Shown: piece after piece, positions 27,208 through 38,169 of the stretch
How positions within the stretch are numbered: the first letter of the stretch is position 1
Layout of the letters: each line of letters starts with the position of its first letter
DNA from: Arcobacteraceae bacterium
GTDB taxonomy: Bacteria; Campylobacterota; Campylobacteria; Campylobacterales; Arcobacteraceae
Direction of reading: 5' to 3'
Assembly: GCA_029935705.1 (NCBI GenBank)
Contig: JAOZJU010000009.1
Coordinates: forward strand, 1-38,198
Length of the DNA stretch: 38,198 nt
Translations under genes and position numbers: made by a program
The notes under the pieces: generated by a model
The model's database searches: none
What the model was told of the DNA's origin: nothing
Seen by the model: the letters and a program-made list of their open reading frames with translations, nothing else

Positions 27208-27690
27208 ATGTACAACAAAGTAATCATGATAGGCCACCTTACAAGAGATATAGAACTAAAATATCTTCCAAATGGCACAGCAATAGGAAAAAGTAGTATA
27301 GCAACAAACCATAGCTACAAAACTCAGTCAGGTGAAAAAAAAGATGAGACTTGTTTTTTAGAGTTTGATATATTTGGCAAACCAGCTGAGATTGTTAACC
27401 AGTATGTCAAAAGAGGGCAAAAGATACTCTTAGAAGGAAGGCTTGTGCTTCAACAATGGACTGCTCAAGATGGAAGCAAACGAAGCAAACATAGTTTAAG
27501 AGTTGAGAGTTTTAAGTTTATGGACAACAAAAGTGATAGTGCTCAAAGTGGAAACTATCAAGGTGAAAACCAAAATAGTTATCAAAACAACTACAACAAT
27601 CAATCACCAGCTCCTCAATCAACAACCCAAGCGACACCAGCACAACAAGTGCCGGAAATAAATATCTCAAACGATGAGATACCATTTTAA
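27208..27690 (+). CDS. ssb: single-stranded DNA-binding protein
   Basis: This 160-residue protein coats single-stranded DNA in replication and repair. The OB fold covers residues 1-110 ([59 protein letters not shown]). A Gln/Asn/Pro-rich linker and the acidic tip NDEIPF, the docking site for partner proteins, follow. It lies between rpsF and rpsR, with a GGAG ribosome binding site nine bases after the rpsF stop. Confidence 0.97.
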
Positions 27691-27700
27691 GGATAAAAAT

Positions 27701-27964
27701 ATGATAAGACAAAAAAGAAAATTTGAAAAAAAATATTGTAAATATACAAAAATGAATGTAGAGTTTATTGACTATAAAGATATGGACCTTGTGAAGATAT
27801 CTTTAAGTGAAAGAGGCAAAATTATGCCACGAAGATTGACAGGCACAAACAAAAAAATTCAAGAGATGTTAGAGGTTGCAGTAAAAAGAGCAAGACATAT
27901 GGCACTTATACCATATACTGTTGATACAAGAAACTTAACACTACCTGCATTTGTAAAACTATAG
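27701..27964 (+). CDS. rpsR: 30S ribosomal protein S18
   Basis: This 87-residue protein pairs with S6 on the 30S platform. Characteristic segments are [22 protein letters not shown] (quoted in part as KKYCKYTKM), then [18 protein letters not shown]-like sequence ([18 protein letters not shown]) and [13 protein letters not shown]. The frame is open upstream to an ATG at 27674 in the end of ssb, but AAGGATAAAAAT stands before the ATG at 27701, which gives the normal S18 beginning [11 protein letters not shown]. Confidence 0.96.
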
Positions 27965-27995
27965 TCAAAAACAGTCTGTGCAAAAGGGATAAACC

Positions 27996-29051
27996 ATAGA
28001 GATACTATCATATTTTTATGGTTTTGACTTTTCTAAGATCGATTTTGTAGAACGGCAAAAAACAATTACAAACAACAAAACCATCCTGTATGGTGCCACA
28101 AAAAGTGGCAAAAGCTATATGCTTTATGATTATCTATCAAGATTCAAATCAAAAGATTATATATATATTGATTTTAACAATCTAAAACTCAAAAACTACG
28201 ACTTTTTTGATCTTATAGATGAGTTTATTGAACAAAACAATATATCTACAATCGCTCTTGACAATTTTATACCCACTTTAAAACTACCAAACTGTCAAAA
28301 TATTCTCATATCTACAAACAGATATTTAGCTATAGAAACTTTTGAAACCATTGAGTTAAACCCTTTGGTATTTAAAGAGTTTTTGCTTTTTGATAGACAT
28401 CAACATATCACAGTGTCGTTTGATTTCTTTTTTAGATATGGCAACTTTGCCTCTACTATATATGAAAATGAGTTTAACAAAAACAACCATCTACAAGCTA
28501 TCTTGTCACAAAGTAGCAAAGATGATACACAGTTACAGATGCTTTTGTCTATATATAAAAATGGCTCACAAGTAAAATCCCAAAGGCAGATATACAATGA
28601 GATAAAAAAAAGCAGTAAAATATCCAAAGATAGGTTTTATCTCTTTTTTGGCGAACTGTTAAAAAACAGACAGATATATCAACTATCAAAACACAACTTT
28701 CCTTATAGTGCAAAAAAACTATACCTATACAACCACAGCTTTATATCATCTATAAATATAAAAAATAGATTTAACCATACTTTTGAAAATATGATATTTT
28801 TGGAATTAAATCAAAAGTTTGACGATATATTTTATAGCAATAAGATTGAGTTTTATATACCAAAAGAGAATTTGATAGTGCTTTGTAGGCCATTTTTCTC
28901 TGCTTCAAATATATTTACAGAGGTTTTGTCATTTATACAAGAGCAAAAGATCAAAAAGGTTATAATAGTTACTATAAATCAACAAGAACAGATATATCTT
29001 GATAATATATTGTGTCAAATTATCCCTTTTTACAAATGGGCAGTATCGTGA
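27996..29051 (+). CDS. P-loop ATPase, AAA_14/DUF4143-like, apparent ATA start
   Basis: The frame encodes about 351 residues. Walker A GATKSGKS lies at residues 34-41 counted from the ATA at 27996, IALDNF is a possible Walker B, and the C-terminal half carries FENMIFLELNQKF and IEFYIPKE, resembling the nuclease-like DUF4143 domain. The first in-frame ATG (28119) falls after the Walker A loop and would destroy the ATPase. Between the upstream in-frame TAA and that ATG there is no ATG, GTG or TTG. AAAAGGGAT sits six bases before ATA-GAG-ATA-CTA, so the start is probably this ATA. The function is unknown; it overlaps rnhB by four bases. Confidence 0.75.
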   Translation: MEILSYFYGFDFSKIDFVERQKTITNNKTILYGATKSGKSYMLYDYLSRFKSKDYIYIDFNNLKLKNYDFFDLIDEFIEQNNISTIALDNFIPTLKLPNCQNILISTNRYLAIETFETIELNPLVFKEFLLFDRHQHITVSFDFFFRYGNFASTIYENEFNKNNHLQAILSQSSKDDTQLQMLLSIYKNGSQVKSQRQIYNEIKKSSKISKDRFYLFFGELLKNRQIYQLSKHNFPYSAKKLYLYNHSFISSINIKNRFNHTFENMIFLELNQKFDDIFYSNKIEFYIPKENLIVLCRPFFSASNIFTEVLSFIQEQKIKKVIIVTINQQEQIYLDNILCQIIPFYKWAVS

Positions 29052-36605: not shown

Positions 36606-37181
36606 CTAAACTTTTGTTTTGCCGTCAATTGCTTTTGCCAATGACAACATATCTACATTTTCCAAACTCACCCCAGTAGGCACCCCTTGGGCAATTTTAT
36701 TAAACTTTATATCAAACTTTTCAAGCTTATCCTCTATAAAGAGTATGAAACTATCATTTGCTATAGATGGCGATACCGCAAAAAGAATCTCTACAATATT
36801 TTCTTTTTCGATCAAAGATATCAGTCTATTGATTAGTGGCTTTTCTATACAATCTACCACAAAATACCTACCATCAAAAATATGGCATTGTTCTATAGTA
36901 AATATATCTTTAGAGTCTTGAACGATACAGAGCTTTTGCCCATCTCTAAACTCATCGAGACATATTTGACAAAACTGATCTTCAGTGATAAAACCACATC
37001 TTTGACAAGCATTGATATGCACAACTGCATCCTCTATACTTTGACTAAGTTTTAAACCATCAAATTTGTTTTTATGCACCATATGATATGCCAACCTTGT
37101 GGCAGATTTTTTACCAATAGAAGGTAGTTGCTCAAGTGCTTCTATAAGATTGTAAAATCTTTCTAAATTTTTTTTGATAAT
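36606..37181 (-). CDS. recR: recombination protein RecR, apparent ATT start
   Basis: The full-length reading has 191 residues: a helix-hairpin-helix start (IIKKNLERFYNLIEALEQ, LPSIGKKSATRLAYHM), the zinc site C59-x2-C62 and C71-x2-C74 (CQRCGFITEDQFCQIC), a Toprim domain and the end GVPTGVSLENVDMLSLAKAI. RecR acts with RecF/RecO in loading RecA at gaps. The first usual start codon in frame is a TTG at 37094, inside the hairpin-helix domain. An in-frame TAA lies 27 bases before the ATT at 37181, and no ATG, GTG or TTG lies between. ATT (or the following ATC) is therefore the likely start, seven bases after the nifU stop. Confidence 0.85.
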   Translation of the reverse strand: MIKKNLERFYNLIEALEQLPSIGKKSATRLAYHMVHKNKFDGLKLSQSIEDAVVHINACQRCGFITEDQFCQICLDEFRDGQKLCIVQDSKDIFTIEQCHIFDGRYFVVDCIEKPLINRLISLIEKENIVEILFAVSPSIANDSFILFIEDKLEKFDIKFNKIAQGVPTGVSLENVDMLSLAKAIDGKTKV

Positions 37182-37188
37182 TTTACTT

Positions 37189-38169
37189 TTATATTGGCAG
37201 GACTCTTATATTTTCATCAACTTTTTGTTTAAGAGTGCTCTCTATAGCATACAAAGTGCCAGTAGATCCGCTCGCACAGCTTCCGCAAGCTCCTAAATAT
37301 CTTATATATATATCATAGTGTGGGATATTTTCTTTTATATCTATGATCTCCATATCTCCGCCATCCATCACAAGCATAGGTCTTATAAATTCATCTATTA
37401 CTGCATCGACTGCTTTTATTCGCTGAACTATTGTCATCTTGTCAAAACTATTTTCACCAGTTTGTGTTGTGTTTGCACTTTTTTCCAAACTTTCTTGGTC
37501 GATAAGTTTTCTTGTCTCTTCTAATATATCGACCAAATATATATCTCGTGGCTCATGCCCCCCTGGTCTAACACATGATTTACAATATGTACCAGCTTTT
37601 GTTTTTTCTCCTATTTGCTCAACCGTAGTCAAATCATAATCCCTAATAGCAGTGATGATATCTTGTTTGGTTTTTCTAGCACACTCACAAACTATATCTA
37701 TATTTTGCAAACTCTCTCTATCTACACCTTTGTATTGGGCAGCTGCTTCGAGTATCACATCGTATGCCATGACAGAGCAGTGCATCTTTTGTGGTGGCAC
37801 TGCTGGAGTATTTTCGTCATCTCTTAGATACTGCTCAACCTCTGTGTTGGTTATTTTAATAGCATCATCAACCTTTTTGCCAATACAAAGCTCAGCCATA
37901 GCATCGCTACTTGCAATAGCAGTACCACAACCAAATGACTTAAACTTACTATCTATTATCGTGTCTGTTTTTTCATCTACAAGCCAAAAAAGTCTCACAG
38001 CATCGCCACAACTCTCTGCTCCAAAATCAGCTACAATAAGTCTAGCTCCTATTTTGTCTGCATCGTTTTGGTTAAATTCACCCATCGCTTTTGGATTGTT
38101 CATCCTATCTTGAACTTTTTTGCTGTATTGTTCCCATACATTTCCACTTATCATATCGCTTCTTGCCAT
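37189..38169 (-). CDS. nifU: iron-sulfur cluster assembly scaffold NifU
   Basis: This 326-residue scaffold builds Fe-S clusters and has three domains. The IscU-like domain carries C54 (AESCGDAVRL), C81 (FGCGTAIASS) and C131 (HCSVMAYD). The central [2Fe-2S] BFD-like domain has C161-x-C163 and C196-x2-C199, and the C-terminal NifU domain has C295-x2-C298 (GACGSC). The full NifU form is the general Fe-S scaffold of Campylobacterota, not evidence of nitrogen fixation. AAAGGAAAATT precedes the ATG. The cysteine desulfurase nifS is normally just upstream, beyond the window edge. It leads the run nifU-recR-FAH. Confidence 0.96.
   Translation of the reverse strand: MARSDMISGNVWEQYSKKVQDRMNNPKAMGEFNQNDADKIGARLIVADFGAESCGDAVRLFWLVDEKTDTIIDSKFKSFGCGTAIASSDAMAELCIGKKVDDAIKITNTEVEQYLRDDENTPAVPPQKMHCSVMAYDVILEAAAQYKGVDRESLQNIDIVCECARKTKQDIITAIRDYDLTTVEQIGEKTKAGTYCKSCVRPGGHEPRDIYLVDILEETRKLIDQESLEKSANTTQTGENSFDKMTIVQRIKAVDAVIDEFIRPMLVMDGGDMEIIDIKENIPHYDIYIRYLGACGSCASGSTGTLYAIESTLKQKVDENIRVLPI

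What the first reader, a model, noticed from the sequence alone, without database searches (positions are those of the whole stretch)
37094..37191. recR without a canonical start codon; ATT at 37181 fits homology
The hairpin-helix residues of RecR (LPSIGKKSATRLAYHM) lie upstream of the first possible TTG start. The frame is closed by TAA 27 bases before the ATT, and nothing but GAG TCC TGC CAA TAT AAA AGT AAA lies between. AUU starts are known for infC and pcnB in E. coli, where they keep expression low and under IF3 control. With the ATA case at 27996, two such genes occur within 10 kb, which suggests either relaxed start selection in this lineage or a common regulatory theme.
Basis: partly seen in the sequence, partly recalled or inferred. 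Interest (0 to 1): 0.57.

Follow-up and report, generated by a model that had tools for sequence, protein, structure and literature searches.

The report
RecR gene starting with AUC codon
A DNA-repair gene in a group of uncultured sea bacteria begins with a near-miss start codon (AUC or AUU instead of AUG) in every known species of its genus, right behind another gene, and several other genes in the same family do the like, so ordinary gene finders misread them.

Summary
recR (window 36606-37178, minus strand) has no ATG, GTG or TTG upstream of residue 29, inside the helix-hairpin-helix domain. The codon homologous to the start of other recR genes is ATC at 37178-37176, not ATT at 37181. All four held genomes of the genus carry ATC, ATC, ATC or ATT there; 26 of 26 non-genus relatives read have ATG or TTG within one codon. 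In this genus alone recR sits 9-10 bases behind the nifU stop, with almost no Shine-Dalgarno in the window. Best explanation: a near-cognate start used by termination-reinitiation, giving low RecR. The ATPase behind rpsR (ATA at 27996) is the second case, also in 4 of 4 genomes. A sample survey added genes with ATA or CTG starts, and rnpA starts with ATT or ATC in 12 of 12 family genomes read. Most of these sites overlap or abut an upstream stop, often as ATAA or ATAG. The habit is thus wider than the genus. A clade-specific IF3 change exists (5 of 5 against 0 of 29), but a role is unproven, because genomes with ordinary IF3 also show AUA and AUU starts. Near-cognate starts are known; this is a new, clustered use.

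The parts
36606..37178 (-). recR coding sequence as proposed here, start ATC at 37178-37176, stop at 36608-36606
   Evidence: TIGR00615 recR equivalog above cut-off (176.4 vs 162.55 bits); alignment to relatives
37176..37178 (-). ATC, proposed start codon; column holds ATC/ATC/ATT in the three congeners and ATG/TTG (within one codon) in 26 of 26 non-genus relatives read
37179..37181 (-).
37179..37188 (-). 10-base gap between the nifU stop and ATC (9-10 in the congeners)
37189..38169 (-). nifU, upstream gene of the pair; within the locus in 7 of 77 recR loci searched = the four genus genomes (three of them twice), in no other
37092..37094 (-). TTG, first canonical start in frame, residue 29
37023..37151 (-). 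RecR helix-hairpin-helix domain (PF21176, residues 10-52), begins upstream of the TTG
27996..29051 (+). second case: AAA-type ATPase gene behind rpsR, start ATA at 27996
   Evidence: AAA_14 just under its cut-off
27982..27989 (+). AAAAGGGA, Shine-Dalgarno-like, 6 bases before the ATA
   Evidence: duplex -5.3 kcal/mol
27991..28024 (+). hairpin (27991-27998 with 28017-28024 as its outer part) that pairs the ATA start codon
   Evidence: z -3.87 for the 80 bases 27966-28045
27674..27964 (+). rpsR, upstream gene of the ATPase, stop 31 bases before the ATA

Best explanation
recR in this Arcobacteraceae genus is translated from a near-cognate start codon, AUC (AUU in one species), at 37178. Ribosomes that finish nifU 9-10 bases upstream reinitiate there with the ordinary initiator tRNA; in the window there is almost no Shine-Dalgarno to help. 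Elsewhere in the family recR has its own promoter whose -10 element lies 5-7 bases before ATG, which would give a leaderless mRNA that needs AUG. When recR came to lie behind nifU, that need fell away and a weak start could keep RecR low on a well-transcribed iron-sulphur gene. The same logic fits the ATPase behind rpsR, and rnpA and yidD behind rpmH. Shown: absence of canonical starts, conservation of AUH in the start column, constraint on the N-terminal codons, the gene pair unique to the genus, weak SD. Inferred: initiation at AUC, reinitiation, low output, strong nifU transcription, the order of events.
For: Start column: ATC/ATC/ATC/ATT in 4 of 4 genus genomes, ATG or TTG within one codon in 26 of 26 non-genus relatives read; 8 further matches gave no locus. 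In G001 only three codons (AGA GAC ACT) lie between an in-frame TAA and the ATT. Of 47 Campylobacterota loci of another collection, 43 have a canonical start near the column; the other 4 are the three congeners again and an independent MAG, L276, with ATC overlapping the upstream gene's end by 13 bases. N-terminal codons 2-28 are under constraint: pN 0.12-0.19 against pS 0.58-0.83 in the five distant pairs; pN 0.00 and pS 0.17 in the close pair. nifU next to recR only in the genus; -10-like hexamer 3-10 bases before the start in 21 of 26 others. SD duplex of window recR -0.6 kcal/mol, matched or beaten by 90% of 586 internal codons. Initiator tRNA ordinary (CAT anticodon, GGG/CCC stem) in the three genus genomes where it was found. 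Paper passages: AUU/AUC/AUA occur as starts and IF3 discriminates against them; leaderless mRNAs need AUG (PMC4611024); loss of recycling causes initiation at non-canonical codons downstream of stops (PMC2268962); AUA/AUU starts give about 10-30% of AUG output in S. aureus (PMC13009471).
Against: No protein or ribosome data exist for any of these organisms here, so initiation at AUC is not shown. The congeners have canonical codons further in (TTG at codon 11 in G002, GTG at codon 12 and ATG at codon 17 in G001/G003) that could give a shorter RecR. All four genus genomes are draft assemblies. In E. coli raised IF3 lowers reinitiation without SD (PMC2268962), so AUC without SD should be very weak. 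Codons 2-10 alone have too few synonymous sites to prove constraint.
Confidence: 0.7

Rival explanations
1. recR starts at an internal canonical codon (TTG 37094 in the window) and the genus makes a shortened RecR.
For: Canonical codons exist downstream: TTG residue 29 in the window, TTG codon 11 in G002, GTG codon 12 in G001/G003.
Against: The positions differ between species. In the window the HhH domain would be cut in the middle. Codons 2-28 are as constrained as the rest.
Confidence: 0.1
2. ATT 37181, is the main start.
For: AUU and AUC are both near-cognate, and ATT is directly adjacent in the window.
Against: Not conserved: TAT, TAT, ACT in the congeners. The only purine stretch, AAAAG, ends 7 bases before ATC and 4 before ATT.
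Confidence: 0.12
3. IF3 of this lineage has lost part of its start-codon discrimination, so near-cognate codons are tolerated anywhere and carry no regulatory meaning.
For: The genus and G022 share KET for KEI/KEV and ERSR in place of KH in the IF3 C-domain: 5 of 5 against 0 of 29 other Campylobacterota. E. coli IF3 fidelity mutants raise non-canonical initiation 3- to 15-fold (PMC5472188 passage).
Against: G022 has the same IF3 change but canonical starts at recR (TTG), yidD (GTG), the ferredoxin (GTG) and the ATPase (ATG). G012 has ordinary IF3 and yet three ATA-start genes and ATT rnpA. Near-cognate genes: 4 of 207 in G000, 4 of 195 in G002, 3 of 278 in G012, too few to tell apart.
Confidence: 0.2
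4. RecR is made as a fusion with NifU by frameshift or stop read-through.
For: The two frames are only 9-10 bases apart.
Against: The frame relation differs: gap 9 in G001 and 10 in the other three, so one would need read-through and the others a frameshift. NifU ends identically (VDENIRVLPI) in all four.
Confidence: 0.03
5. Assembly error or pseudogene.
For: Draft assemblies of many contigs, three of them named as metagenome assemblies.
Against: Four separate assemblies agree; the frame is open and constrained.
Confidence: 0.02

Closest known systems
infC (IF3) with AUU/AUC/AUA start
   Same: A near-cognate AUH start in a conserved gene; IF3 represses it (PMC5472188 and PMC13009471 passages).
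   Different: recR encodes no initiation factor, has almost no SD in the window and lies at a coupling junction. infC of this genus itself starts with TTG.
S. aureus cvfC1 (AUU), ccpN (AUA), citZ (AUA)
   Same: Near-cognate starts, two of them conserved, lowering output.
   Different: There extended SD motifs direct the weak start; recR here has none, though the window ATPase, rpe, the peptidase, pabB and the helicase have fair ones.
Streptomyces sigR (GTC start)
   Same: A non-canonical start keeps one of two neighbouring products low; IF3 represses it.
   Different: sigR is the upstream gene of its pair; recR is the downstream one.
Translational coupling with 4-base overlap (ATGA; recalled)
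   Same: yidD, the ATPase of G001/G003, hypF and a glycosyltransferase start within the upstream stop.
   Different: The overlap reads ATAA or ATAG, so the start is AUA and the stop UAA or UAG.
Listeria rsbW ATA/ATT variants
   Same: ATG changed to ATA/ATT lowers output (PMC13068326 abstract).
   Different: There recent mutations under selection; here fixed across a genus.

Membership tests
Genes with a non-canonical (near-cognate) start codon | No ATG/GTG/TTG at or upstream of the homologous start | tested here: met
   four genus genomes
Genes with a non-canonical (near-cognate) start codon | Near-cognate codon conserved at the homologous start | tested here: met
   ATC/ATC/ATC/ATT in 4 of 4; the genomes share ancestry
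Genes with a non-canonical (near-cognate) start codon | Coding constraint reaches up to that codon | tested here: met
   pN well below pS over codons 2-28; codons 2-10 alone inconclusive
Genes with a non-canonical (near-cognate) start codon | Initiation with fMet shown at the codon | not testable with these tools
   needs peptides or footprints
IF3-repressed genes of the infC type | Output rises in IF3 fidelity mutants | not testable with these tools
   no expression data
Translationally coupled gene pairs | Short distance from upstream stop, conserved | tested here: met
   9-10 bases in 4 of 4
Translationally coupled gene pairs | Downstream translation depends on upstream translation | not testable with these tools
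   needs a reporter
RecR | RecR family model and HhH domain | tested here: met
   TIGR00615 over cut-off, PF21176 over cut-off; Toprim_4 just under its cut-off, 24.6 vs 25
Leaderless mRNA genes | -10 element directly before the start and AUG start | tested here: inconclusive
   The genus lacks AUG, a requirement of leaderless translation according to PMC4611024. The -10 scan was scored only on the 26 canonical relatives; by eye a TATAAA hexamer ends 9 bases before the window ATC

The most novel reading that the evidence does not exclude
Arcobacteraceae use near-cognate AUA/AUU/AUC starts as a regular device at translational-coupling junctions: a low-dose protein is placed directly behind a highly expressed gene (rpmH-rnpA-yidD, rpsR-ATPase, nifU-recR), and overlaps ATAA/ATAG take the place of ATGA. 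One G-to-A change in ATGA turns start and stop into ATA and TAA at once, which is a ready route to such sites. In the clade of this genus a changed IF3 C-domain may have widened the set further.
Probability: 0.35. Interest if true: 0.75.

Novelty: new variant of a known kind. Interest (0 to 1): 0.56.

Why it matters
Gene finders that accept only ATG, GTG and TTG truncate or lose such genes (rnpA would lose 9 to 104 codons in the 12 genomes read), so start-codon rules drawn from annotation are circular. If the junction reading is right, it gives a simple, testable grammar for where bacteria tolerate AUH starts and a set of conserved natural sites for studying reinitiation and IF3 discrimination.

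Tried and rejected
Frameshift or read-through from nifU: rejected, the frame relation differs between species. Altered initiator tRNA: rejected for G000, G001 and G003; not found in G002. 16S changes: not testable, no 16S match in the four genus genomes. infC with an upstream near-cognate start: its conserved upstream frame appears by eye to overlap the thrS end in another frame; TTG kept. RNA structure at the nifU-recR junction: nothing unusual (z -0.43 and -0.56). The helicase of G012 in its own genus: loci could not be cut, so its ATA was not checked in relatives. Survey method: stop-to-stop frames of 60 or more codons, overlapped frames removed, L138 replaced by its tail, alignments beginning after subject residue 15 dropped. 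A first run without removal of overlapping frames was mostly shadow frames. G000 L130 (glycosyltransferase, ATA, overlap ATAA) is probable but not in the count of 4; G012 L161 (rnpA) was recognised only and is not in the count of 3. The method misses genes whose reference also lacks a canonical start, so the counts are lower bounds; a frame-against-frame rerun added rnpA and otherwise mostly ordinary or shadow frames. No genome-wide control in an unrelated bacterium was possible. Papers: eight searches of the open library showed no report of AUH starts in recR or rnpA of Campylobacterota in their listings; subscription journals are mostly missing. PMC5397182 (all 64 codons in E. coli) is not held.

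Full report
Observation. The recR frame on the minus strand is open from 37205 to the stop at 36608-36606. No ATG, GTG or TTG precedes TTG 37094, which is residue 29 counted from ATC 37178.

Which codon. Relatives were read (38 of 41 genomes matched; loci for 30, the window's own among them). In 26 of 26 non-genus relatives read the start is ATG (24) or TTG (2), in 22 exactly in the column of ATC 37178 and in 4 one codon earlier. The three congeners have ATC, ATC and ATT in that column. The genus search holds four genomes, all with recR. In G001 an in-frame TAA leaves only AGA GAC ACT before ATT.

A second collection. Of 80 loci returned I tabulated the 47 Campylobacterota. 43 have a canonical start near the column. 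The four exceptions are the same three congeners under their public names (QMKX01000031, JAOZMC010000046, JAOZTH010000075) and JAOXRY010000165 (L276), a separate Campylobacterales lineage with ATC inside the end of an upstream phosphatase-like gene (the name of that gene is my reading of its sequence). That is an independent arrival at AUC in recR, in a single draft genome.

Constraint. Codons 2-28 show pN 0.12-0.19 and pS 0.58-0.83 in the five distant pairs, and 0.00 and 0.17 in the close pair, like or better than the rest of the gene. Codons 2-10 alone are too few.

Context. nifU lies beside recR in the four genus genomes only (7 of 77 loci searched, three genomes counted twice), with 10, 10, 10 and 9 bases between stop and start. 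In 21 of 26 relatives outside the genus a -10-like hexamer ends 3-10 bases before the start, which would make those mRNAs leaderless or nearly so (inference). SD pairing of the window recR is -0.6 kcal/mol; in the congeners -2.4 to -3.0; the background mean of internal codons is -3.06 and canonical starts average -5.09. Reinitiation behind nifU is the likeliest way in, and low RecR output the likeliest result; both are inferred.

The second gene. The ATPase at 27996 has ATA in the window, ATT in G002 and ATA in G001 and G003. In the last two the ATA overlaps the rpsR stop as ATAG. 28 of 28 other relatives with a readable start have ATG (27) or TTG (1); one further locus, L054, lacks the N-terminus. 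The window ATA lies in a hairpin with z -3.87.

Survey. With G012 (same family, complete) as reference, 8 of 160 N-terminally matched G000 genes and 5 of 149 G002 genes were flagged; by eye 4 and 4 stand: G000 ATPase ATA, recR ATC, a ferredoxin-type protein CTG, yidD ATA; G002 ATPase ATT, recR ATC, rpe CTG, an Xaa-Pro peptidase-like protein ATA. In reverse, G012 gave 4 of 162 and 4 of 186 flagged, of which three look real, all ATA: pabB-like, hypF-like and a DEAD-box helicase (these three names are my reading of the alignments). Against all unique matched genes this is 4 of 207, 4 of 195 and 3 of 278; the differences are not meaningful. The G012 genes are thus both control and extension: near-cognate starts are not confined to this genus. 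yidD is ATA in G000 and G002, ATG in G001 and G003; the ferredoxin is CTG only in G000, TTG in the congeners, GTG in G022.

rnpA. The only near-cognate codon there is ATT in 11 and ATC in 1, always overlapping rpmH by 13 bases; the first canonical codon comes 9 codons later in G001 and G003 and 27 to 104 codons later in the other ten. The bases at the junction also encode the end of L34, so their conservation is partly owed to rpmH; but in the genome where L34 ends differently (L340) a near-cognate ATC is still found.

Junctions. recR (gap 9-10), ATPase (gap 31, gap 10, overlap 4, overlap 4), yidD (overlap 4), the probable glycosyltransferase (overlap 4), the ferredoxin (overlap 8), hypF (overlap 4), pabB (0), rnpA (overlap 13) and recR of L276 (overlap 13) lie at or near an upstream stop; rpe and the helicase do not and have fair SD; the peptidase lies at the edge of its stretch. 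This favours a regulatory or coupling theme over random loss of ATG.

IF3. In the genus and G022, IF3 has T where all 29 others have I or V, and ERSR where the others have KH. By an alignment with E. coli IF3 recalled from memory these are near residues 96 and 112-115. G022 shares the change without near-cognate starts in the recR, ATPase, yidD and ferredoxin genes (its rnpA has the family's ATT), and G012 lacks it while having such starts. I keep it as an open lead only.

Prior art. AUU/AUC/AUA starts, IF3 discrimination and weakened output are established (passages of PMC4611024, PMC5472188, PMC13009471; abstract of PMC13068326; abstract and passages of PMC2268962). The A. butzleri genome paper predicted frames with ATG, GTG and TTG only, with starts then curated by hand (passages). 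What is new here is the genus-wide AUH start of recR and of the ATPase, the family-wide AUU/AUC of rnpA, and the clustering at coupling junctions; I found no report of these in the eight paper searches named in Tried and rejected.

Noticed in passing
L330-L341 (rpmH-rnpA junction): rnpA starts with ATT (11) or ATC (1) in 12 of 12 Arcobacteraceae read, always overlapping rpmH by 13 bases.
   Followed up: partly
L007-L031, upstream of recR: In 21 of 26 non-genus relatives a -10-like hexamer ends 3-10 bases before the recR start, suggesting leaderless mRNA.
   Followed up: partly
L076-L079, L329 (infC): Clade-specific IF3 C-domain change (KET; ERSR) in the genus and G022, 5 of 5 against 0 of 29.
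   Followed up: partly
window 27991-28024: Strong hairpin pairs the ATA start codon of the ATPase (z -3.87 for 27966-28045); might be a further brake on translation.
   Followed up: no
L276:1498: Independent ATC start of recR in another Campylobacterales MAG, overlapping the upstream gene by 13 bases, with AAGGA before it.
   Followed up: partly
L180:2146, L225:1236, L229:18661 (-): Three G012 genes with ATA starts; in hypF-like L225 the first canonical codon comes 204 codons into the frame.
   Followed up: partly
L130:1293: Probable ATA start of a glycosyltransferase in G000, overlapping the upstream stop as ATAA.
   Followed up: partly
G000 genes: Isoleucine codons are strongly biased to ATA (6.7% of codons against 1.7% ATT and 1.85% ATC).
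   Followed up: no
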